Shown here: positions 7,460 to 33,664 of the stretch, piece by piece
Layout: each line of letters opens with the position of its first letter
Numbering within the stretch: position 1 is the stretch's first letter
NCBI GenBank assembly: GCA_902792115.1
Contig: CADAYJ010000012.1
Coordinates: forward strand, 1-37,748
Reading direction: 5' to 3'
Origin: an uncultured Ruminococcus sp.
GTDB taxonomy: Bacteria; Bacillota; Clostridia; Oscillospirales; Acutalibacteraceae
DNA: 37,748 nucleotides
Notes under the pieces: model-generated
Databases searched by the model: none
What the model was told of the DNA's origin: nothing
Seen by the model: only the letters and a program-made list of their open reading frames with translations
Position numbers and translations under genes: made by a program

Positions 7460-10400
7460 TCACTGCTCAAGCACCTTCTGGATATGCTCGCAGTTGCGAT
7501 CGTTGAACTCGAAGCGGAGCGAGCCTTCGTTGAGAACGACTACGCTGTTCTGCGGAACGGTGTACTTGCGGAGGATCTCCTTGTAGTTGACGATCTCATA
7601 GTCCGCTACGACGTTGACGTTTTCGCCGAAGAAGCGCTTCATTTCAAACTCGTCGCTGAATACAAGCACCTTCTTCATTCCGTTCTTGTCGTCGATAGTG
7701 ATCGGGCGAAGGTCGCTTCTGTCGCGGCCGTACATCGGGAGAACGTATCTCGCCGTTGTGAATTCGCGGATCATGCGCTTCTCGAGCGAACGCACCTCAG
7801 CTTCCTTGTTCGGATTGGAGGACTTGATCTGGAGCTTCTGGAAGAGCGTCGTCATGCTGAACATCAGCTCGGGGTTCATGACGGGGATCTTCACGTAGTC
7901 TCTCTCGTAAACGTCGAGCATCTCGGAGATGCGGTTCGTCTGGATAATGATCCAGTGTCCCGTCTCATCAAGGACAAGATCTTCGATGCCGTGACGTCTG
8001 TACTCAAAGAGCATATTGTAGATATCCTTTGTGCGGTACTCCTGGAGGTATACCTTGATATTTGCCTTTGCGAAGTTCTCTACGGACTTCTCTGCAAGGT
8101 ACTTATCGGAGAAGATATGGCCCTTGTTGTTGCCGTCAATGAGGATATGCCTTGTGTGCGCGTCAAACTCTGCGTACATCACATCGGCGTTTGCGATCAT
8201 CTTTGCGAGATCACGGTAGCAAGTGTCCAGCTTATCGCGCAGCTCCTTTGCCGCCATCGCGTCGCTCTCAACATCAAGCGAGCGCTGCGTAGCCTTCGTC
8301 TTTGCAGCCTGATCCTGGATCGTCATGCCGCCTCTGCGCTGCTGCGATCCCTGTCCGGAAACGTCGCCGTACATCAGACTCGAAAGGTCAAACATATCGT
8401 TCTTCCTGTCGTTCTCATGAGCAAGCTCGTTGAGGACGGTGTTCACGCCCTTTGTCCTTGCCTCTGTCGGCTTCGTTGTGATCGGAGCCGCGCTTACGAT
8501 ACCGTCGGAATACGGAGTCGCCATGATCTCGTCCTCGGGAACGTCCTCGATAAAGAGCGGCTTCGATACCTTGAACGCCTTCTTTACCTTTCCGCCCTCG
8601 ATGCCCTCGGATACGGAGCTGATAACGAGACCGTCAGGGTTCTCCTGAGCGTCAAGCTGGCGCTTTGCAGCCTGCTGAGCAGGAGACGGGATCGTCTTCG
8701 GTGCCGGCGGAACAGTTGCCGGAGCAGCGGCGGACTGATTTACGGAAGGCATATTATAATCGAACGAACGCTTCTGCGCCGACTCGTAAATGCTCTTCTG
8801 CTGCATTCCGTTGCCCTTGGCTATCTGATTGCTGCCGTATATATTTGTTTTCTTGAAATCGTTGTTGGGAAGCTCGATCGGAGGCTTCTCCGGCGGCGCT
8901 CCCTGCGGTCTGTAATAGCTGCTCGGAGCCGCTTCCTCAGGCTCGAATACGTCGCTGTCTGCCAGACCGGAAAGGTCGAGGCTCGGAAGATCCGGCGAAT
9001 CGCTGTTGAGGTTCATGCCTGCAAGAGGAGACTTCTTGTCTTCTTCGTCGCTGAAGAAGATGCCGCCGCCTGCCGGCTTCTTCAGGTTCGCTGCGACCGC
9101 TGCCGCTGCTGCAGGAGGTGTGAATCCGCCCGGCTTGTTTGCGAACGCTGCCGCTGCTGCCGGCGGGATACCGAATGCCTTTGCAGCCTGAGCCGTCTCG
9201 GCCTTCGCCTTTGCCTCGGCAGCCTTTGCCTTTGCCTCAGCCTCTTCCTTTTCCTTCCTTGCAGCTTCAAGCTGCGCTTCCTCTGCCTTCTCCTTGGCCG
9301 CTATCTCTGCCTTAGCCGCTGCTGCGGAGGCTGCATCCTTCTCCGCTCTCTCGGCTCTTTCATTAGCTGCAGCTCTTGCGGATTCCGCTGTCTGAGCGGC
9401 CTTGATAGCCTCCTCTGCCGCAGCCTTGGCTTCCTCCGCCGTGTGTACTGCGTCGTCGAGAGCCTTCTTAGCCTGTGCAAGCTCTGCCTTGGCTTCCTCT
9501 GCTTCTCTTGCGGCCTGCTCGGCAGCCTGCAAAGCTGCGTCTGCGCGGGTTCTCTCCTCTGCGAGAGACTTCTCCGCCGCCGCCTTGACTGCCTCGATCT
9601 CCTCGCGCTCCTTCGCTGCCTTCTCCTCTTCGCGTCTGATCTTTTCCTCGTCCTCGAGGTCGAACGGGTTGACATACTCGTCGATCTTAGTCCTGCGCTC
9701 GTCGTTCTCGTCTACAATAGACTTGTCGTAATTCGGCTTTGCGCCCTTGAGGATCGTCTTGTTCATGATAAATCCAAGGCTCGACGGGTTGATGATATAG
9801 TGAGTAACGTCGTGGAACGCAAGCAGCCTTGTCTCGATCTCGTAAAGACCTCTGAACGGCATACCTACGCTTCTCGCCTCGGTGAAGTCCGTAAATACGG
9901 GGCAGAAGTTATTTTTGCCGTCCGTAAATGTGAGGGGCTTGAAGTCGTCTATATTCTCGTCGGTTATCTCTGTGATATCCTGATTGAGTGCGTATGTGTA
10001 AACCTTGCTGCCGAGGAACGACTCTGCGATCGCCGAGCGCAGTCCGTCGTCTCCCTTCTGCATAAAGTTGAGCACCTTGAAGTACAGCTTCGGAGCGATA
10101 ACGCCCTCGCTCTTGACGTGGGGATCGAAGTCCTCCGGAGCATACACGTGACTTCTGTCGTTGTTTACAATGATCTTCTTGAGACCGAAGCGCTTGAGGT
10201 CGTCAAAGAACGCGCCCTTTTCGTCGATCTCCTGAGCGATCGTGTCCTCGATGCCAAGCTCTGCCGCACGTTTTACAGTGCACACGTTTACGCAGAATTC
10301 GTCGTCAAGGTACGGGTAGTTCGTTATAAGCGAATATGTGCAGTAGATCTCCGTAGCGCCCTTGATGTCCTCGATGTTCTGCTGGACGGGATCGACGACC

Positions 10401-12217
10401 TTGACGTCGAGCTTCGCCTTAACGAGGTTCTCCATGCAGGCGGAGCAGATGTTCTTGTTGTCGAAGAGGAAGAGATCGGACTCCTTGTAGCGGTTGTTGC
10501 AGATCGCGCAGTTCGTGATCTTGTTGGAGTTCGGGCGCTTCTTTGTGCCGCCCATGTTGATTCTCTCGGTAACAGGAGGCAGATTCGTCTTTGTTGACGT
10601 CGTCTCGACAGCTGCGGTCGCGTTCGACGTTCTCGTGATCTCGTAATCGTATATATCGCCGGCCGGTGTGCGGATCTCCTTGACGGCGAAATCGCCCGGT
10701 CTGCGCTGGCGGTTTTTCCACATATTCAGCTCGCGCTGAGGAAGCGGAGCGATCTCGCCGTTGATGACCTTGAAGGTCGCGCCGCGGCGTGAATCGGTAT
10801 AAATGCTGAAATACTCATTTTCGAGCAGCAGCTTCATGGTGTCTGTCTTTTCAAACTTGACTCTCTTCTGATCGACGCCCTTTGCGACCTCCTGAGTCGG
10901 AGCCGGTGCGCCTGCCGGTGCTGCCGGCTTAGCGGAGGAGCCCTTTACGCCGTTCATCTCGGGAACGTGTACGTCGTCCGGGATAATTACGGGAACGGGA
11001 GCCGTTACTACGGGCGCTGCCGTGAGAGTGCCGTCCTCGTTGATCTTGGAGATCAGGTAGTCGAACGGCTTGCCGGAGGAATCCTTCATCGTCGTGACAA
11101 CGAAGCCGGTGGGATTCTTAACTCTGTTCTTCCAGAAATTAAGCTCACGCTGCTCGATGTTGACGATCTCGTCGTCTACGACCTTGAAGACCTTTGACGC
11201 GCGCTTGTCCTTGTAGAACTTGCAGAATTCCGTCTCGAGAAGAAGCTCCGTCGTATCGTTCATCTGGAACTTTACGCGGTCCGTCGGACGCTCGCCTACC
11301 TTCTCCTCGTTTCTGAGAGTCCTTGCTCTCTGAGGCTGTGCCTGTCTCGGCGCAGGCGCAGGTGCAGCCTGTCTCGGAGCCGGTGCCGGTGCGGGCGCGG
11401 GTGCAGCCTGTCTCGGTGCCGGTGCGGGATTGGGTGCAGTCTGCCTCGGTGCCTGCATGACCGGAGTCGTTACAGGCTCCTGAGTCGGAGCCGGCGCAGG
11501 TGCAGCTGCCGGCGCAGGCGCAGCCGGAGCCTCCGCCCTTTCTATCTTATAGTCGTACGTCTTTCCTGCCGCGTCGTTTAAGATCGTGACCTGGAAATTC
11601 GCAGGGTTTTTAAGCTGATTCTTCCACATATTCAGCTCACGGACCTCGATATTCGCGACCTCTCCGTCTATGACCTTGAATGTGCGGTTCGTACGCTTGT
11701 TGCGGTATACGGAAAAGAAGTCGTTAGCGAAGATCTGCTCTATGTCTTCTCCCTGCTCGAACTTGATCCTTGACTCCTTCTCGTCCTCGGAAATAGTATG
11801 CGTCTTCGGCATTCCTGCGCGCGCAGGTCTTGCCGGAGCTGCCGCTCTTGCAGGTGCCGCCGCCCTTGCCGGAGCTGCCGCCGCCCTTGCCGGAGCTGCC
11901 GCCGCACTCGGTGCGGACGCCGGAGCCGGTGCCGGAGCAGGCGCAGGAGCCGCGCCTCTTGCCGTCCTCGCGATCTGATAATCAACGATCGCTCCCTGCG
12001 GATTCTTAACGGGAGTTACGACGAAGCCGGCCGGATTCTTTTTCCGGCTTTTCCACATATTCAGCTCTTTCAGTTCAATCGGGACCGTCTGCCCGTTGAT
12101 GAGCTTATACGTTTTGCTTGCTCTCGGATCGTTGCAGATCTTAAAGTACTCGTTTTCCAAAACGATAGTAATGTTTTCGTTTATGTCTTCAAATTTGGAT
12201 CGATTTGACTCAGTCAT
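7460..12217 (-). CDS. Giant multidomain cytoplasmic protein: four repeat domains, zinc knuckle, SseB-like modules, coiled coil
   Basis: I do not recognise this 1585-residue protein as a named family. Start ATG 12217 has AAGGAG eight bases upstream. Four copies of a domain of about 76 residues lie at 8-83, 151-226, 315-391 and 453-529, with the consensus kF..(t)..ll.neyF.iy.d.R...tFKVi.gei..i..RELNMWKnr.k.P.gF.V ending in DYeI. Copies 1-3 are separated by Ala/Pro/Arg/Gln-rich linkers. A zinc knuckle follows (C570, C573, C591, C594; CX2C-X17-CX2C). The region about 610-825 resembles SseB domains (FCPVFTDFTEARSVG, YIINPSSLGFIM), then comes a charged Ala/Glu coiled coil at about 855-1060, a disordered Pro/Ser segment, and a C-terminal SseB-like module (1487-1585; ARYVLPMY, VLVFSDEFEMKRFF). 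There is no signal peptide or membrane segment. SseB domains occur in type III secretion regulators and type VII-linked proteins of Gram-positives, but that does not fix a function here. It is monocistronic. Confidence 0.75.
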   Translation of the reverse strand: MTESNRSKFEDINENITIVLENEYFKICNDPRASKTYKLINGQTVPIELKELNMWKSRKKNPAGFVVTPVKNPQGAIVDYQIARTARGAAPAPAPAPAPASAPSAAAAPARAAAAPARAAAPARAAAPARPARAGMPKTHTISEDEKESRIKFEQGEDIEQIFANDFFSVYRNKRTNRTFKVIDGEVANIEVRELNMWKNQLKNPANFQVTILNDAAGKTYDYKIERAEAPAAPAPAAAPAPAPTQEPVTTPVMQAPRQTAPNPAPAPRQAAPAPAPAPAPRQAAPAPAPRQAQPQRARTLRNEEKVGERPTDRVKFQMNDTTELLLETEFCKFYKDKRASKVFKVVDDEIVNIEQRELNFWKNRVKNPTGFVVTTMKDSSGKPFDYLISKINEDGTLTAAPVVTAPVPVIIPDDVHVPEMNGVKGSSAKPAAPAGAPAPTQEVAKGVDQKRVKFEKTDTMKLLLENEYFSIYTDSRRGATFKVINGEIAPLPQRELNMWKNRQRRPGDFAVKEIRTPAGDIYDYEITRTSNATAAVETTSTKTNLPPVTERINMGGTKKRPNSNKITNCAICNNRYKESDLFLFDNKNICSACMENLVKAKLDVKVVDPVQQNIEDIKGATEIYCTYSLITNYPYLDDEFCVNVCTVKRAAELGIEDTIAQEIDEKGAFFDDLKRFGLKKIIVNNDRSHVYAPEDFDPHVKSEGVIAPKLYFKVLNFMQKGDDGLRSAIAESFLGSKVYTYALNQDITEITDENIDDFKPLTFTDGKNNFCPVFTDFTEARSVGMPFRGLYEIETRLLAFHDVTHYIINPSSLGFIMNKTILKGAKPNYDKSIVDENDERRTKIDEYVNPFDLEDEEKIRREEEKAAKEREEIEAVKAAAEKSLAEERTRADAALQAAEQAAREAEEAKAELAQAKKALDDAVHTAEEAKAAAEEAIKAAQTAESARAAANERAERAEKDAASAAAAKAEIAAKEKAEEAQLEAARKEKEEAEAKAKAAEAKAKAETAQAAKAFGIPPAAAAAFANKPGGFTPPAAAAAVAANLKKPAGGGIFFSDEEDKKSPLAGMNLNSDSPDLPSLDLSGLADSDVFEPEEAAPSSYYRPQGAPPEKPPIELPNNDFKKTNIYGSNQIAKGNGMQQKSIYESAQKRSFDYNMPSVNQSAAAPATVPPAPKTIPSPAQQAAKRQLDAQENPDGLVISSVSEGIEGGKVKKAFKVSKPLFIEDVPEDEIMATPYSDGIVSAAPITTKPTEARTKGVNTVLNELAHENDRKNDMFDLSSLMYGDVSGQGSQQRRGGMTIQDQAAKTKATQRSLDVESDAMAAKELRDKLDTCYRDLAKMIANADVMYAEFDAHTRHILIDGNNKGHIFSDKYLAEKSVENFAKANIKVYLQEYRTKDIYNMLFEYRRHGIEDLVLDETGHWIIIQTNRISEMLDVYERDYVKIPVMNPELMFSMTTLFQKLQIKSSNPNKEAEVRSLEKRMIREFTTARYVLPMYGRDRSDLRPITIDDKNGMKKVLVFSDEFEMKRFFGENVNVVADYEIVNYKEILRKYTVPQNSVVVLNEGSLRFEFNDRNCEHIQKVLEQ

Positions 12218-12239
12218 TAGAATCACTCCTTCTCATAAA

Positions 12240-12268
12240 ATTTTACTATAAATAGGATTTTTTTTCAA
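12240..12268 (-). promoter_or_regulatory. Sigma-A promoter of the giant repeat protein gene
   Basis: On the minus strand TTGAAA (12268-12263), a 17-nt spacer and TAAAAT (12245-12240) are followed almost at once by AAGGAG and the ATG at 12217. The leader is thus only about 15 nt. Confidence 0.75.
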
Positions 12269-13783: not shown

Positions 13784-14314
13784 ATGTTATGTCAAAACTG
13801 CAAAACAAGACAGGCAAACACACACATCAGGCAAGTCATCAACGGTGAGCTGACAGAGCTTGACCTTTGCCCCGAATGCGCCGCTAAGCTCGGCTACGAG
13901 AACGCATTCTCGGATTTTCTCGACCTCGGCTCTATGATGAGCGGATTCCTCGGAATGCCGACGGTCTCCGCTCTCGCGCGGGAGGATAAATGCCCCGGCT
14001 GCGGAGCGACGTTCTCGCAGATCACAAAGAGCGGAAAGGTCGGCTGCGCGAAGTGCTACGACGTCTTTTTCGAGCGCCTGCTGCCTACGATCAAAAGGAT
14101 CCACGGAAACACCGTCCACACGGGAAAGCGCCTGAGAACGGCGCGCCTGCAGAGCGGCAGCACCAAGGAGCAGCACGAAGACAGCAGAACAGAGCTGGAA
14201 ACGCTCTCCGAAAAGCTGCAGGCAGCCGTTAAGGCGCAGGAATTCGAGCAGGCTGCAAAGCTGCGCGACAGGATCAACGAGCTGAAGGAGAAGGGAGAGG
14301 CAGATCATGGATAA
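13784..14314 (+). CDS. mcsA: McsA, zinc-finger activator of McsB
   Basis: McsA binds and activates the arginine kinase McsB and modulates CtsR. The 176-residue protein has zinc-binding CXXC pairs at C3/C6, C29/C32, C70/C73 and C88/C91, and a C-terminal UVR motif of the UvrB/UvrC type at about 137-172 that contacts partners. AAAGGAG precedes the ATG. It overlaps the mcsB start by 8 nt, indicating coupled translation. All key cysteines are present. Confidence 0.92.
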   Translation: MLCQNCKTRQANTHIRQVINGELTELDLCPECAAKLGYENAFSDFLDLGSMMSGFLGMPTVSALAREDKCPGCGATFSQITKSGKVGCAKCYDVFFERLLPTIKRIHGNTVHTGKRLRTARLQSGSTKEQHEDSRTELETLSEKLQAAVKAQEFEQAAKLRDRINELKEKGEADHG

Positions 14315-15326
14315 AAAGTGGTATGAGAAAAACGGAAAGGACGGCGAGGTCGTCATAAGCACGCGCGTGCGCCTCGCAAGGAATCTTGAAGAGTTCCCGT
14401 TCCCTGCACGCTGCGGCAGTGACCTTCGCCGCCGTATATCGGAGCGCGTAAAGGACGCCGTAATGAACTCCGGCTCCGTGATTTCGTCAAGATTTTCGTG
14501 CCTTGACGTGGATAATATTAGTACGGGTGAGAAGGTATCTCTCGTTGAACGCCACCTCGTAAGCCCGGAATTCATCGGAACAAAGGGCGAAAAGACGGTT
14601 CTTCTGATGGATGATGAAAGCGTCTCGATCATGGTAAACGAGGAGGATCACATCAGGCTGCAGGTAATGTGCGAAGGTTTTGACCTTGACCGCGCATATG
14701 AGCAGGCGAGCCGCATAGACACGCTTCTCGACGAGCGCCTGAAATTCGCGTTCTCCGACACGCTCGGATACCTCACGCAATGCCCGACAAATCTCGGCAC
14801 CGGCATGAGAGCCTCCGTAATGCTCCATCTCCCGGCGCTGAAGGCTGCAAATGCGATGCAAAAGATCGCGGAGAACCTCTCAAAGCTCGGCATCACGATC
14901 CGCGGAGCATACGGAGAGGGCACCGAGCCGAAGGCCGGTCTTTACCAGCTTTCCAATCAGATCACACTCGGCATCAGCTAAAAAACCGCGATCGAAAACC
15001 TCCGCAATATCACGAAGCAGCTAATCGCTCAGGAGCTTCAGACGCGCGAGAAGATGGCAAAGCAGCTCGACGTTCAGGATAAAATATACCGTTCCGAGGG
15101 AATACTGAGAAGTGCGCGCCTGATCGACGGCAGCGAAGCGCTGATGCACCTTTCGAGAGTGCGCTTCGGCGTTACGGCAGGTCTCATAAAGGACGTCTCC
15201 CTCGACACGATCAACAGGCTTATAGTCGAGATTCAGCCGGCAACGCTGATGCTCGCTGTCGGCAAGGAGCTTTCTCCCGGAGAGCGCGACGCCGCCAGAG
15301 CGGCGCTGATACGCAGTAATCTGTGA
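14307..15326 (+). pseudogene. mcsB: McsB protein-arginine kinase with one in-frame UAA codon
   Basis: McsB phosphorylates arginines on damaged proteins, marking them for ClpC-ClpP. The reading frame 14307-15326 is continuous and 339 codons long except for TAA at 14979-14981 (codon 225). Upstream are the kinase motifs STRVRLARN (18-26), NEEDHIR (111-117), CPTNLGTGMRASV (159-171), RGAYGEGTE (199-207) and YQLSNQITLGIS. The same frame resumes directly with KTAIENLRNITKQ and carries the C-terminal phosphoarginine-binding part to the stop at 15326. A GAA-to-TAA change would explain it (expected LGISEKTAIENL). The truncated product would be 224 residues and lack the C-terminal domain. No other lesion is seen, so this is a recent mutation, a sequence error or, less likely, readthrough. 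An ATG at 15054 could not rebuild a kinase. Confidence 0.85.
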
Positions 15327-17944: not shown

Positions 17945-19023
17945 TTATCCGTTTTTGCCGACGAGCGTCTGCTCGTTCATGCCGATCGAGAAGCGCAGAA
18001 CGGAAAGCGCATCGTTTGCGGTGATGTCGCTGTCCTCGTCCACGTTGCCGATCTTCTTCGTTTCATCGTCATACTCTTCAAGAAGAATGGAGCAGCGAAG
18101 TATCGAAGCGGCGTCAACAGCCGTGATGTAGCCGTCGCGGTCAACGTCGCCGTAAATAAACGACGCTGCGGGCGGAGCGTCCTTTATCAGCTCAAAGGGA
18201 ATATTGTTTGTCTGAGCATACTTATGCGCCGTCGAATTTTCGTAGCACCAGATAAAGGCATTGTGGCTTCGCTCAACTATTTTTTCATCAATCTCGGTAA
18301 CAGATGCGGGAATGAGCAGCTTAGTGAGATTCTCATTGTAGGCGAAAGCGTGGTATCCGATCCTCGTTACGCCGTCGGGAATTATTACCTCTCTCAGATT
18401 ACATTCGACGAACGCACCGTTTTTGATCTCGGTGACATTCTTCGAGATGGTAACGCTCTTTAATCCGTGCATATTGGAAAGCGCGCCGTCATCAAGCTCC
18501 GTCACGGTGTCCGGGATAACAAGCTCCGTAATTTTTTCGTTGTTAAAAAACGCATGTTGACCGAGCTTTGTTATGGAAGAGGGGATCTCGACAGACTCAA
18601 GTGAAGTACAGTACGAAAAGCAGCTCTCCGGAATCTCCGTCAAATTGGAGGACAGCTTGACGCTCTTGATCGTGTTGCAGCACATGAAGGCCTCCTTTGC
18701 GATCGTCGTCACCGAATCGGGGATAATGAGCGTTTCGATCCCCGGAGCGTCAGGATCTGTTCCGAATTTCTCTTGGGCGAAGCCGCGACTCTTACTGTTT
18801 CCGGCGTACTCGAACGCCTGACTGCCGATAAAAGTAAGCGTATCCGGCAGCTCAAGCCTTTGCAGAGAATACAATACTTGTAGTCGCCGCTCTCGATGTA
18901 ATTAACGCCCGACGGCGAAACAGCGGAGATATCAGCCGCGTTTGCAGTCAGCGCAGCGCCGGAAGCTGAAACAGCCATTACCGCAGCGAGAATAAATGCA
19001 GCAATTTTTTTGGTTTTCGCAAT
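17945..19023 (-). pseudogene. Broken secreted leucine-rich-repeat (BspA-type) protein with C-terminal dockerin
   Basis: Read on the minus strand, the 5' part gives a good signal peptide (AKTKKIAAFILAAVMAVSAS...TANA), but no ATG precedes it: AAGGAGG is followed by TTTT and an ATT codon at 19023. The frame reaches SGDYKY and then diverges; the LRR frame begins nearby at a TTG (18874) and reads SLQRLELPDTLTFIGSQAF with about six BspA-type repeats. The C-terminus is a dockerin with two calcium-loop segments (GDVDRDGYITAVDAA and GNVDEDSDITANDAL). Intact relatives have further sequence between GDYKY-like segments and the repeats, so an internal deletion with frameshift plus loss of the start codon is the simplest reading. 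It lies 24 nt after the cyclophilin gene and may share its transcript. The intact protein would have attached to a cohesin-bearing surface scaffold. Confidence 0.7.
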
Positions 19024-29998: not shown

Positions 29999-30034
29999 GC
30001 GTTAAACAACCCCAAACCGAAAGGAGCATTGTTT

Positions 30035-33000
30035 ATGAAAAGAATACATAGAAAATCAAAAAAAATCACCGCAGCGGTGCTTGCAGCGTGCATTGCCGCT
30101 TCCTGCGCGTCGATCGGTTCGTTCGCGGACAACGTACAGGAGGTGTTCGGCGACGTTGACGGCGACGGCTTCGTAACATCGGCGGACGCCTTAGAGGCGC
30201 TGCGTATGTCGCTCGGCATGGACGTTTCTGATAAGAGCGGCGCACCGTCCGGAGCGTCGAGAAACGCCGCCGACGTTGACGGAGACGGAGACGTCACCTC
30301 AAACGACGCTCTTCTGATCCTGCGTGAAAGCGTGGGCTTCAACGTACTCGCTTCATACATCGCCAAAGCTAACGGTAATTTCAAATCTGATACCGATGAC
30401 CGCCCCGATCACAGCGACCTCTCGACCGATACCGGCACTGATACCTGCGATCCGCAATCGTACAAAAATATTTACTTTAACTTTGAACACGGCCCCGTCG
30501 AGTTCACGGTGTATGACAGCGGCGCAGGCGAATATATTGATTTAGAGGGAGACTCTCTTGGAATTAAGGACGACACCCTCCAGATCAAGGTTCCTATGCC
30601 CAAGGATGAGTTTGGCAAAGATAAGTATAACTCGGTCGATATCGGGATCAAAGGAGAGTACAATAGTACGCAAACCCAATTCGACGAAGAAACACAGGCG
30701 TATATCTTCTACATAGCCGGGATAAGCAGCGGCCTTACGATAACGCTCGCATACGTTTCCGAGGAGGAGCAGGGCACCGACGTTCCGGCTATCGAGCATA
30801 ATATTAAGGTTGTATCAAAGGGCGAGCCTGTACCTTTCTCTGTGTACAGCGACTCCCAGTATCAGTCACCGACGGGCGAAGTATACGATAATTACTCGTT
30901 AACGGCTTGGAAGGACGATTATGAGGACGGCTGTGTAGAGTTCATCAAACCTTCCGAAGAGCTTAAGTTAAAGGCTATTATGATGCACGACGATGCGGGC
31001 AACGAGATATATGACGGCATCAATATTGAGATCGACGGCAAATATGCCGATCTCAGCACCGAGATCGACTCCGATACGCTCGACCGCACATTCACGATCT
31101 CAGGTCTTATGAGCATAGATCTTACGATCACGTTATACTACGGCAATAAGATAGATTTGGACTCCGACCAAGAGAAGGATACGGATACGGCGTCGGGCAC
31201 AGATACAGACACAGAGATAACCTCCGACAATTCTGAAAATGACAGCCGGCTTATAGAGAACGGTATCAACAAATTCTCCGGTCAGCTCTTCAAGGAGTGC
31301 TACGAGAACGGCAAGAACACGATCATCTCCCCCCTCTCCGTGTACATAGCTCTCGCAATGACGCAGAACGGCGCAGACGGCGATACGCACAAGGAATTCG
31401 CGCAGCTGCTTTCCGAAGGCGCCGTCAGCGACGAGGCAATGAACAAGTATTTCAGAAAGTACATCAAGACAGCAAACTTAGGCGATACTCTCCGCACCTC
31501 AAACTCCTATTTTATCATCGAAAACGGCCTTGTGGATATGCAGCCCGGCTTTAAGGATACCATCGAGTCGAACTACTTCGCCGAGGTCTTCAACGGCAAG
31601 CCCGACATTGAAACGGAAAACATGATCAATGACTGGGCAAAGGACAAGACAGACGGCATGATCGACTCGATCCTCCCTCCCGGCACGCTTAACGAGCATT
31701 CGATCGCCGTTTTGCTCAACGCGATCTGCTTTGACGCCGAGTGGCGCGATAAGTACGACGAAGACCATGTCGGCGAGAGCAAATTCACGAATTACGACGG
31801 ACAGACCGTCAATACTGAATTCCTCTACGGTGAAGAGAACAGCTACATCAACGGCGAGAACGTCACAGGCTTTATAAAACCCTACTCCACGGAATGGAGC
31901 AGCGAGTATTTCAATCAGACGGGCAACGGATACAGAGAGAATTACAGCTTTGTCGCTCTGCTCCCGGATGAGGACGTTTCCATCGACGATTATATCGCTT
32001 CGCTCGACGACGATACGATCAGATCACTCGTCAAAGGCGCAAGGTCTGTTCCCGTAGACACCAAGATGCCGAAGTTCACGGCGGACAGCGACCTAAGTCT
32101 CAACGACATTCTCCGCAAGCTGGGTATCCCGCAGGCGTTCGACAAGATCAGCGCCAACCTCAAAAGGCTTGCGAAGCACAAGCTGGACGACGGCAACGTC
32201 TATATCGACAGTGTTCTCCATAAGGCGCATATCGCGCTTACGGAAGCCGGAACGAAGGCGGCCGCCGTAACAGCGATCACAGTCTGTGAAGCAGACTCCG
32301 CACCCGATGGGCCTGAGCAGCGCATGGAGGTCGATCTCGACCGCCCGTTCGTCTACGTGATATACGACAAGAATAACGATATCCCCGTATTCATCGGCGC
32401 ACAGTGCGATCTCACGGAGGACGCGAAAGCGTACCGTGAGCGCTGCAATGAGAAGGAAAACCTCCAAAACGTAAAAAATCAGATCACTGACGATATCAAC
32501 GGCTTTTCCTCGGATATGTTCAAAAAGTTCTCGCAGAACAACAAGGGCAAAAACACCGTTATCTCTCCCCTCTCCGTATATGCCGCTCTCGCAATGACTA
32601 ACAACGGCAGCGCAAACGTCACGAAGGACGAAATGCTTGGCGTTCTCTCCCGCAAGCCGGAGATGATCAGCGACAGCAGCCTCAACACATATTTCAAGGA
32701 CTATATGAACGATCTTCAAATAAGCGACTCGCTCAAAATGGCGAATTCCATATTTGTAATGGACCGCGACGACGTTGACGTAAAGGAGACGTTTATCCGG
32801 GCGCTCAAGGACAACTATTTCTCAGAGGTTTTCAACGCTCCGGCAAACGACGAGACGGTAGACAAGATAAACAAATGGTGCAGCGAGAATACGGACAAGA
32901 TGATCGAATCTATCCTCGACCACGGCAGCCTGGACGAGACATCACTCGCAGTTATTCTCAACGCGATCTGCTTTGATGCCGAGTGGGATGAGCCGTACGA

Positions 33001-33664
33001 CGACGCTGAGAACATCAGGAACTACGCCTTCAACAACTACGACGGCACTCAGACGGAGGCAAAATTCCTCTGCTCGACGGAATCCCAATACATTGAGGAC
33101 GACAAGGCTGTCGGCTTCATAAAGAAATACGCCTATAAGAGCCCGATCACCGATTTAAACCTTTCGGACCGCTACTCGTTCGCTGCGATCCTTCCGAAGG
33201 AGGGCGTGACGATCGACGAATACATCGCTTCAATGGACGACGATACGATCCGTTCCCTTATAAACGATGCCTGGTACGAGCCGGTAGACACAAGGCTTCC
33301 CGCCTTCAAGATCGACAGTGAAGCGTCTCTCAGAGCGATGCTCGCGGCTCTCGGAATGCCCTCCGCATTCAGCCTGCCGGACGCAGACTTCTCCGAGCTT
33401 GCCGTTCCGAAGAATCCGGACGAAAACGTATACATCGACGACGTTATTCACAAGGCTCACATCGAGCTTGACAACCAGGGCACAAAGGCAGCCGCAGTAA
33501 CGGCAGTAGTAATGAAGTGCGACGTTACTGCGTTACCGATAGAAGAAGATCCGCACAAGCAGGTCTTCCTCGACCGTCCGTTCATTTACGTGATCTACGA
33601 CAATGCTCACGACATTCCCGTATTCGTAGGAACGGTCTGCGATTTCAGCGACACGGCAAAGTAA
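30035..33664 (+). CDS. Secreted dockerin protein with two serpin domains
   Basis: This is a protease-inhibitor protein probably docked on a cellulosome-like scaffold. Order in 1209 residues: signal peptide (1-31), N-terminal dockerin with calcium loops DVDGDGFVTSAD (40-51) and DVDGDGDVTSND (80-91), a Thr/Asp linker, two beta-rich domains of about 100 residues each that share an FTVYDSG/FSVYSDS-like start and (D)LTITLYY-like end, a Thr/Asp spacer, serpin 1 (about 405-798) and serpin 2 (about 818-1209). Both serpins have the inhibitory hinge GTKAAAVTA (near 737 and 1147), followed by different reactive loops (ITVCEADSAPDGPEQ and VVMKCDVTALPIEED) that are some 7-8 residues longer than that of alpha-1-antitrypsin, so P1 cannot be assigned safely. 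ATG 30035 has AAGGAG eight bases upstream. Dockerin serpins are known from cellulolytic Clostridia. Confidence 0.9.
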   Translation: MKRIHRKSKKITAAVLAACIAASCASIGSFADNVQEVFGDVDGDGFVTSADALEALRMSLGMDVSDKSGAPSGASRNAADVDGDGDVTSNDALLILRESVGFNVLASYIAKANGNFKSDTDDRPDHSDLSTDTGTDTCDPQSYKNIYFNFEHGPVEFTVYDSGAGEYIDLEGDSLGIKDDTLQIKVPMPKDEFGKDKYNSVDIGIKGEYNSTQTQFDEETQAYIFYIAGISSGLTITLAYVSEEEQGTDVPAIEHNIKVVSKGEPVPFSVYSDSQYQSPTGEVYDNYSLTAWKDDYEDGCVEFIKPSEELKLKAIMMHDDAGNEIYDGINIEIDGKYADLSTEIDSDTLDRTFTISGLMSIDLTITLYYGNKIDLDSDQEKDTDTASGTDTDTEITSDNSENDSRLIENGINKFSGQLFKECYENGKNTIISPLSVYIALAMTQNGADGDTHKEFAQLLSEGAVSDEAMNKYFRKYIKTANLGDTLRTSNSYFIIENGLVDMQPGFKDTIESNYFAEVFNGKPDIETENMINDWAKDKTDGMIDSILPPGTLNEHSIAVLLNAICFDAEWRDKYDEDHVGESKFTNYDGQTVNTEFLYGEENSYINGENVTGFIKPYSTEWSSEYFNQTGNGYRENYSFVALLPDEDVSIDDYIASLDDDTIRSLVKGARSVPVDTKMPKFTADSDLSLNDILRKLGIPQAFDKISANLKRLAKHKLDDGNVYIDSVLHKAHIALTEAGTKAAAVTAITVCEADSAPDGPEQRMEVDLDRPFVYVIYDKNNDIPVFIGAQCDLTEDAKAYRERCNEKENLQNVKNQITDDINGFSSDMFKKFSQNNKGKNTVISPLSVYAALAMTNNGSANVTKDEMLGVLSRKPEMISDSSLNTYFKDYMNDLQISDSLKMANSIFVMDRDDVDVKETFIRALKDNYFSEVFNAPANDETVDKINKWCSENTDKMIESILDHGSLDETSLAVILNAICFDAEWDEPYDDAENIRNYAFNNYDGTQTEAKFLCSTESQYIEDDKAVGFIKKYAYKSPITDLNLSDRYSFAAILPKEGVTIDEYIASMDDDTIRSLINDAWYEPVDTRLPAFKIDSEASLRAMLAALGMPSAFSLPDADFSELAVPKNPDENVYIDDVIHKAHIELDNQGTKAAAVTAVVMKCDVTALPIEEDPHKQVFLDRPFIYVIYDNAHDIPVFVGTVCDFSDTAK

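What the first reader, a model, noticed from the sequence alone, without database searches (positions are those of the whole stretch)
7460..12217. Giant protein with a possibly undescribed fourfold domain joined to a zinc knuckle, SseB-like modules and a coiled coil
Four copies of an approximately 76-residue unit share the strict core RELN(M/F)WKN (KELNMWKS in copy 1) and a FKV...DY(E/K)I frame, separated by Ala/Pro linkers. A CX2C-X17-CX2C knuckle, two regions that read like SseB domains, and an Ala/Glu coiled coil follow. I know no named family with this order. The tandem sensor-like units, flexible spacers and absence of a membrane segment suggest a cytoplasmic scaffold. Repeat structure and cysteines are seen directly; SseB likeness is by motif; scaffold role is inference.
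Basis: partly seen in the sequence, partly recalled or inferred. Interest (0 to 1): 0.75.

Follow-up and report, generated by a model that had tools for sequence, protein, structure and literature searches.

The report
Giant rumen-bacterial scaffold with orphan repeats
A genus of mostly rumen clostridia carries a very large cell-interior protein that joins four copies of an unrecognised domain to a zinc finger, a long coiled coil and two SseB-type modules; it looks like a protein-gathering scaffold, but its job is untested.

Summary
It has four units of about 80 residues (33-36 of 82 positions identical pairwise), a CX2C-X17-CX2C finger, a heptad-periodic Ala/Glu helix and two SseB-type regions. 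Each SseB region is two-lobed: residues 609-833 and 1331-1588. The C-terminal one is firmly SseB-related (profile E down to 1.5e-13 against stand-alone SseB proteins of the same taxonomic family); the middle one is weaker.

The repeat matched no described family in the libraries used and, apart from one chance-level hit, no genome outside the genus in order and phylum samples. The gene is in 21 of 22 genus genomes; all 15 ORFs whose N-terminal part is not cut by a contig end have four repeats, grouping largely by position. Purifying selection is clear (dN/dS 0.11).

Best reading: a soluble, coiled-coil-oligomerised, multivalent scaffold whose SseB modules (Tic22-like, according to PMC9503650) bind clients. 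Architecture is well supported; function is inference. The neighbouring McsA-McsB-ClpC genes are a hint limited to part of the genus.

The parts
12240..12268 (-). sigma-A-type promoter TTGAAA-17-TAAAAT, 22 bases before the ATG
   Evidence: seen in sequence; same core upstream of 13 of 15 genus loci looked at; only zero-mismatch site among 8 sites with up to 2 mismatches in the own genome, backwards-pattern control 0
12226..12231 (-). Shine-Dalgarno AAGGAG, 8 nt before ATG 12217
   Evidence: seen in sequence
7460..12217 (-). giant protein gene, 1,585 aa from ATG (1,588 codons from GTG 12226)
   Evidence: dN/dS 0.113 over 1,560 aligned codons against a relative (L043) with 82% amino-acid identity there; match in 21 of 22 genus genomes, own included
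11957..12190 (-). repeat 1 (residues 13-90, GTG numbering)
11771..11956 (-). Ala/Pro linker 1 (45% Ala, 19% Pro)
11531..11770 (-). repeat 2 (residues 153-232)
11279..11530 (-). Ala/Pro linker 2 (30% Ala, 27% Pro)
11039..11278 (-). repeat 3 (residues 317-396)
10868..11038 (-). Ala/Pro linker 3 (18% Ala, 16% Pro)
10625..10867 (-). repeat 4 (residues 454-534), the most conserved copy in the pair compared (91% identity, dN/dS 0.042)
10403..10513 (-). C4 zinc-finger-like motif, C573 C576 C594 C597
   Evidence: the four Cys are invariant in 20 of 20 aligned homologues; weak DUF4428/RING/LIM/ClpX-finger matches below cut-off
9728..10402 (-). SseB-type module 1, two lobes (residues 609-833)
   Evidence: PF07179 listed for 17 of 20 members at E up to 5, best 2.9e-4, window 0.0033; profile and register match, weak
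9002..9694 (-). Ala/Glu helix (residues 845-1075), coiled-coil periodicity at about 861-980
8237..9001 (-). likely flexible linker (residues 1076-1330) with a conserved patch at about 1204-1229
7463..8236 (-). SseB-type module 2, two lobes (residues 1331-1588)
   Evidence: profile hits to five stand-alone SseB proteins, E 1.5e-13 to 1e-7; PF07179 listed for 11 of 16 members at E up to 5, best 0.0011

Best explanation
The gene encodes a soluble, multivalent scaffold/adaptor protein, probably well expressed. Shown by sequence: four copies of an orphan domain on Ala/Pro linkers, a C4 finger motif, a two-lobed SseB-type module, a stretch of 164 residues without Pro or Gly and with coiled-coil periodicity in its first part, a long linker, and a second two-lobed SseB-type module. 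Inferred: the coiled coil makes an oligomer; the SseB modules bind peptides or client proteins in a chaperone-like way, as proposed for SseB from its likeness to Tic22 in PMC9503650; the four repeats dock separate partners or one repetitive partner, so that clients are gathered near a partner machine. Which partner is unknown. The McsA-McsB-ClpC and cyclophilin genes nearby suggest protein quality control, but only in part of the genus.
For: SseB relationship: C-terminal profile against 445 ORFs from SseB loci: five proteins at E 1.5e-13 to 1e-7; best of 4,450 shuffles 0.04; profile of six stand-alone tandem proteins finds 16 of 16 C-terminal regions at 1.4e-9 or better. Chaperone idea for SseB: section 3.8 of PMC9503650. 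Oligomerisation: periodicity. Soluble. Repeats kept apart by selection: four in each of 15 ORFs not cut at the N-terminal side, grouping mostly by position with 5 label changes against a shuffled mean of 33.7. Module conservation: repeat 4 and the SseB modules have the lowest dN/dS, 0.042, 0.043 and 0.078. Expression: conserved promoter; codon bias rank 44 of 301 sampled genes. Neighbourhood: McsA-McsB-ClpC in 6 and cyclophilin in 10 of 20 genus genomes looked at (19 plus the window; tallied by hand).
Against: My literature searches showed no measured activity for Pfam-type SseB proteins (mostly listings); the Tic22 link is a published HHpred probability of 89% and was not retested here. That paper also leans on the Salmonella T3SS translocon protein called SseB, which I recall to be only a namesake. 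The middle module is weak: with the six-protein profile 2 of 20 members score worse than the best of 1,850 shuffles (2.4e-4); with L157 left out 12 of 20 do (best shuffle 0.0023) and the window copy (0.0022) about equals it. L157 had itself been picked because it matched the middle profile, so the first figure leans towards the middle module. Repeats 1 and 2 (dN/dS 0.173, 0.135) are no more constrained than the linkers (0.112, with saturated dS) in the one pair compared. The neighbourhood is not constant: G003, G004 and G009 have other genes beside it. Nothing shows what the repeats bind. No fold was predicted.
Confidence: 0.4

Rival explanations
1. Structural or spacer protein: the coiled coil and Ala/Pro linkers build an elongated filament or a cell-pole or division organiser, and the SseB modules are mere end caps.
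For: 164 residues without Pro or Gly, with heptad signal, long flexible linkers, four fixed repeats.
Against: The SseB modules, not the coil, are the conserved parts (dN/dS 0.043 and 0.078 against 0.189 for the coil), which favours a binding role.
Confidence: 0.2
2. Adaptor for the ClpC/McsB arginine-phosphorylation degradation pathway, delivering clients through its finger and SseB modules.
For: McsA-McsB-ClpC within 6 kb of the gene start in the window and on the same fetched stretch in five other genus genomes; finger weakly like the ClpX finger (3 of 20 members at E up to 5; PDB profile E 0.14).
Against: Not found beside the gene in the other 14 of 20 genomes looked at, though many contigs end close by; own promoter, no shared operon; McsB in the window carries an in-frame stop.
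Confidence: 0.12
3. Conflict (anti-phage or ADP-ribosylation) component, as SseB is in some ARG-centred systems.
For: SseB is linked to such systems in PMC9503650; two SseB proteins found here are fused to a domain that reads, by eye and recall, as an ADP-ribosylglycohydrolase (L143, L151).
Against: No PADLOC match; residues 453-842 have no match in phage and plasmid records, and repeat and 453-842 patterns gave no confirmed relative in viral contigs; nearly genus-wide, with stable architecture under purifying selection, unlike fast-changing defence genes.
Confidence: 0.08
4. Nucleic-acid- or ribosome-associated hub, the basic, Trp-containing repeats being the binding units.
For: Three of four repeats have calculated pI 9.1-9.6; invariant or nearly invariant Arg, Lys and Trp.
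Against: Repeat 2 is near neutral (pI 6.5) and net charges are only 0 to +4; no significant match to any family (the best PDB hits, eS4 ribosomal proteins, are at E 0.77).
Confidence: 0.15

Closest known systems
SseB family proteins (Pfam PF07179), stand-alone tandem kind in the same taxonomic family (loci L141, L148, L149, L152, L154, L157)
   Same: Two-lobe layout; second lobe with a (V/F)F(T/S)D-like core and a late (I/V)xN(P) strand; the C-terminal module aligns with L154 over profile positions 11-260 of 265.
   Different: Those open frames are 297-571 aa with one tandem; here two tandems are joined to repeats, finger and coil in 1,585 aa. The window regions score 18.0 and 15.4 bits, below the 21-bit cut-off.
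Tic22 peptide-binding chaperones
   Same: SseB was related to Tic22 by others (PMC9503650, HHpred 89%).
   Different: Not compared here; Tic22 serves protein import in plastids and cyanobacteria (recalled).
Giant 'T3SS SseB-like' protein (6,783-nt gene) of Rathayibacter toxicus, PMC7143919
   Same: Very large and annotated SseB-like (passages).
   Different: Only the annotation was seen; no sequence was compared, so any relation is unknown.
DUF4428 / ClpX C4 finger / Gin-type small zinc modules
   Same: CX2C...CX2C pattern and weak profile matches.
   Different: All below Pfam cut-offs in the window; one finger inside a giant protein.
TolA-like Ala/Glu/Lys helical domain
   Same: Composition; NCBIfam TolA E 0.0018 at 17.4 bits over 860-1073.
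   Different: Far below the 213-bit cut-off; no membrane segment; read as a compositional match.

Membership tests
SseB (PF07179) | Curated Pfam gathering score (21 bits) | tested here: not met
   Window: 18.0 bits (middle) and 15.4 bits (C-terminal). One genus relative (G004) is marked over the cut-off at 21 bits.
SseB (PF07179) | Detectable homology of the C-terminal module to proteins that pass the Pfam cut-off | tested here: met
   E 1.5e-13 to 1e-7 to five such proteins; shuffles no better than 0.04 (cut-offs).
SseB (PF07179) | Same for the middle module | tested here: inconclusive
   Six-protein profile: best member 2.1e-9, window copy 1.4e-5, worst 5.7e-4, best of 1,850 shuffles 2.4e-4; without L157 12 of 20 members are worse than the best shuffle. 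Middle profile against SseB-locus ORFs: best 0.0028 (L157), shuffles 0.039. PF07179 listed for 17 of 20 members at E up to 5, best 2.9e-4.
SseB (PF07179) | SseB three-dimensional fold | not testable with these tools
   Structure prediction switched off.
Tic22-like chaperones | Profile or fold match to Tic22 | not tested
   Literature claim only.
DUF4428 (PF14471) | Gathering score 27.8 bits | tested here: not met
   15.4 bits in the window region, listed for 12 of 20 members at E up to 5; 17.4 bits for a consensus.
Any described family, for the fourfold repeat | Significant profile match | tested here: not met
   38 selected units against Pfam: at most 3 units per family, best E 0.0053, scattered; consensus none; PDB profile best E 0.77. 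NCBIfam and PHROGs were searched with the whole protein only.

The most novel reading that the evidence does not exclude
The fourfold unit is a previously undescribed protein domain, born or diverged beyond recognition in one rumen clostridial genus and fixed there in four distinct copies, and it equips a giant SseB-based protein to act as a client-gathering hub, a new kind of bacterial chaperone scaffold.
Probability: 0.3. Interest if true: 0.65.

Novelty: new variant of a known kind. Interest (0 to 1): 0.5.

Why it matters
SseB proteins occur in quite different bacteria (2 of 14 control genomes, E. coli and Lactococcus lactis, and 31 of 200 genomes of this taxonomic family), yet my searches showed no tested activity. 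A nearly genus-wide protein under purifying selection that carries two SseB modules on one scaffold makes the chaperone proposal testable, and the repeat is an unassigned domain whose fold could be settled quickly. Large lineage-specific proteins of uncultured gut bacteria are easily overlooked.

Tried and rejected
Rejected: the + strand ORF (1,037 aa) over the same DNA; I put it down to codon bias, since the frame is broken up in 8 of 9 relatives, although it is longer in L043. Rejected: membrane protein. No sign of mobile or phage origin: 27 and 28 pattern matches in viral contigs, none confirmed, no match of residues 453-842 in phages or plasmids. Rejected: homologues outside the genus; 16 of 150 genomes matched, 14 of them outside the genus (best E 1.7e-10, G028), and I read those 14 as Ala/Pro low complexity or chance because the matched parts lie wholly or partly on linkers and the repeat profile matched only genus members in the order sample. 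One repeat match elsewhere in the phylum (G504, E 0.008, 33-codon frame with a stop) was treated as chance. Led nowhere: hhalign of genus-only profiles, where even two true SseB subfamilies reached only 31.6% and a shuffled control reached 30%; a relation of the repeat to the N-terminal part of L157; Rfam; tRNA scan; PADLOC.

Weak points: the profile search (290 order genomes) listed no SseB relatives of the kind that one search found in this taxonomic family; whether those genomes were in its sample was not checked. So absence means absence of close relatives at that tool's sensitivity, not of distant ones. The neighbour tally (6 and 10 of 20) was made by hand; G015, whose contig holds little beyond the gene, was left out, and several contigs end within a few kb. 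In one search one of ten sequences (L049) was started at a wrong Met, which adds about one gap per column in the N-terminal part. In one search the start chosen for L046 was internal, and L050 lacks the promoter. The codon-bias reference was rpoB and rpoC only, and genes were taken as longest ORFs of 150 codons or more in the window and 20 stretches. dN/dS is NG86 on one pair with dS 0.67-2.1. Repeat tree: few columns; R1, R2, R3 and R4 needed 2, 3, 1 and 2 changes, so grouping by position is strong but not perfect, exceptions lying in G001, G007, G012 and G020.

Full report
1. What is there. The feature is a single gene on the minus strand, 7460-12226 from a GTG (1,588 codons). The AAGGAG Shine-Dalgarno overlaps that GTG and sits 8 nt before an ATG at 12217, so the protein probably starts there (1,585 aa). 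Residue numbers below count from the GTG unless stated. The finding named the right ends but no strand. The + strand over the same DNA also holds a 1,037-aa ORF; in nine relatives that antisense frame has 2-35 stops and is broken into shorter runs in eight, though longer in L043, while the minus frame gives dN/dS 0.113 over 1,560 aligned codons against L043.

2. The four repeats. Units at about 13-90, 153-232, 317-396 and 454-534 share 33-36 of 82 positions pairwise. Each is found by a profile of the other three at 94.6-102.3 bits against at most 11.7 bits in 2,000 shuffles per unit. Across 38 selected units, F6, K34, N49, W51, F61, G71, D75 and I78 (positions in repeat 4) are invariant. Of 19 genus ORFs in which repeats were found, 15 have exactly four; the other four have two or three and run off their contig on the N-terminal side. 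For G003, G004 and G009 repeat-bearing pieces lie on a second contig and are probably the missing part. In a tree of 60 units from 15 genomes the copies group mainly by position: 5 label changes against a minimum of 3 and a shuffled mean of 33.7. The copies therefore largely diverged before the genus did. That the unit is two hairpins around a helix carrying ELNMWKN is my reading by eye, not a prediction.

3. What the repeat is related to. Nothing significant: Pfam on the whole protein, on 38 units (best E 0.0053, no family in more than 3 units) and on a consensus (none); PDB by profile (best E 0.77); NCBIfam, PHROGs and PADLOC with the whole protein. With the repeat profile 2 of 295 genomes of the order matched, both in the genus, and 2 of 398 of the phylum: the own genome and one E 0.008 match that I treat as chance. 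Profiles of residues 453-842 and of the C-terminus each matched 2 of 290 order genomes, again only the genus. A genome-contig scan with residues 453-842 gave 20 confirmed loci, titled uncultured Ruminococcus, Clostridiales or Clostridia. One title says rumen and one duodenum of dairy cattle; most others carry RUG isolate names, which I recall to mean rumen uncultured genomes. Within the genus 21 of 22 genomes carry the gene; the one without is 68% complete.

4. Finger, coil and SseB modules. C573, C576, C594 and C597 are invariant in 20 of 20 homologues. Weak matches, listed at E up to 5, point to DUF4428 (12 of 20 members), RING, LIM, Gin and the ClpX finger (3 of 20), all below cut-off in the window. 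Residues 855-1018 hold no Pro or Gly, and the Ala/Glu stretch has a 3.5-residue periodicity matched by 4 of 2,000 shuffles, strongest at about 861-980. PF07179 (SseB) is listed at E up to 5 for 17 of 20 middle regions (best 2.9e-4) and 11 of 16 C-terminal regions (best 1.1e-3). A genus-wide PF07179 scan at E up to 0.01 reached the giant ORF in four of 22 genomes, once over the cut-off. SseB proteins of the same taxonomic family that pass the cut-off settled the point for the C-terminus: its profile finds five of them at E 1.5e-13 to 1e-7, one (L154) over positions 11-260 of 265, with no shuffle of 4,450 better than 0.04; the middle profile reached only 0.0028 (L157) against a best shuffle of 0.039. 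A profile of six stand-alone tandem proteins finds all 16 C-terminal regions (1.4e-9 or better) and lists all 20 middle regions, the latter weakly: 2.1e-9 to 5.7e-4, with two of 20 worse than the best shuffle (2.4e-4). Without L157 in the profile 12 of 20 middle regions are worse than the best shuffle (0.0023), and the window copy (0.0022) about equals it. By eye the middle region shares with L157 a KR(F/Y)G..KII stretch, a (P/L)(V/L)FTD stretch and an NPS(S/T)LGFI stretch in the same order.

5. Expression and selection. A TTGAAA-17-TAAAAT promoter with AT-rich upstream DNA lies 22 bases before the ATG and recurs before 13 of 15 genus genes looked at (L050 lacks it; L046 was misread by the script). 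In the whole genome it is the only exact match among 8 sites with up to two mismatches. Codon bias towards rpoB/rpoC ranks 44 of 301 sampled genes. dN/dS by part, one pair: repeats 1-4 0.173, 0.135, 0.086, 0.042; linkers 1-3 0.112 (dS 2.1, saturated); finger 0.086; SseB module 1 0.043; coil 0.189; C-terminal linker 0.134; SseB module 2 0.078. So repeat 4 and the SseB modules are the constrained parts, while repeats 1 and 2 are not more constrained than the linkers in this pair. Conservation over ten sequences shows short islands outside the domains at about 534-550 and 1203-1225, there counted from the ATG.

6. Neighbours. The gene lies between rqcH (NFACT domains) and a divergent ArsR-type regulator. 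Beyond follow a McsA-like protein (UVR motif), McsB (ATP:guanido phosphotransferase), ClpC, a dockerin protein, a cyclophilin (Pro_isomerase), rpoC and rpoB (Pfam; ClpC, rpoB and the names McsA and McsB are my reading of the sequence). By hand and the window, McsA-McsB-ClpC share the stretch in 6 of 20 genus genomes looked at and the cyclophilin in 10 of 20. In G003, G004 and G009 other genes lie downstream. There is no constant operon partner.

7. How it may work. From the anatomy: an oligomer (inferred from the coil), soluble (no hydrophobic segment), with several binding modules on flexible arms. PMC9503650 (passages, then section 3.8) relates SseB to Tic22 peptide-binding chaperones by HHpred at 89% and proposes a chaperone role. 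I infer that the SseB modules hold clients and the repeats dock partners. Client and partner are unknown; quality control with ClpC is one option. Rivals are listed with their tests.

8. Literature. Searches for SseB with enhanced serine sensitivity, SseB domain/family/like, DUF4428, SseB with Tic22, and SseB Pfam names listed no paper that I recognised as describing this protein. Beyond the listings I saw passages of PMC9503650, PMC13190303 and PMC7143919 and one section of PMC9503650. PMC13190303 reports DUF4428 at the N-terminus of some SNIPE nuclease homologues. PMC7143919 mentions a very large (6,783-nt) SseB-like gene in Rathayibacter toxicus, so a giant SseB-annotated protein is not in itself new; it was not compared. 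These searches do not prove that the present protein is undescribed.

9. Verdict. A real, conserved and unusual architecture; SseB is a known family; new are the orphan repeat and the combination. Function is open.

Noticed in passing
window 14307-14981 (+): McsB-like arginine kinase gene has an in-frame stop where three genus relatives read on; either a broken gene or an assembly error.
   Followed up: partly
window 30029-33664 (+): 1,211-aa protein with a type I dockerin and two serpin stretches, a possible cellulosome-borne protease inhibitor.
   Followed up: no
window 17945-18874 (-): BspA-type leucine-rich repeats followed by a type I dockerin.
   Followed up: no
L143 and L151: SseB regions fused to what reads by eye as an ADP-ribosylglycohydrolase (L143 also with a macro-like C-terminus), recalling the ARG-SseB link of PMC9503650.
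   Followed up: no
L001 829-1923, L002 1333-1911: Two stand-alone SseB proteins in the window's own genome; 22 of 22 genus genomes have an SseB match over the cut-off.
   Followed up: partly
L157 1078-2790 (-): 571-aa tandem SseB open frame with an acidic stretch and a basic, aromatic C-terminal tail; a similar basic tip is at the N-terminal side of the L001 SseB protein, perhaps membrane-touching (by eye).
   Followed up: no
window 7484-10597 (+): Long antisense ORF of 1,037 aa over the giant gene, even longer stop-free in L043 (1,473 aa); put down to codon bias.
   Followed up: yes
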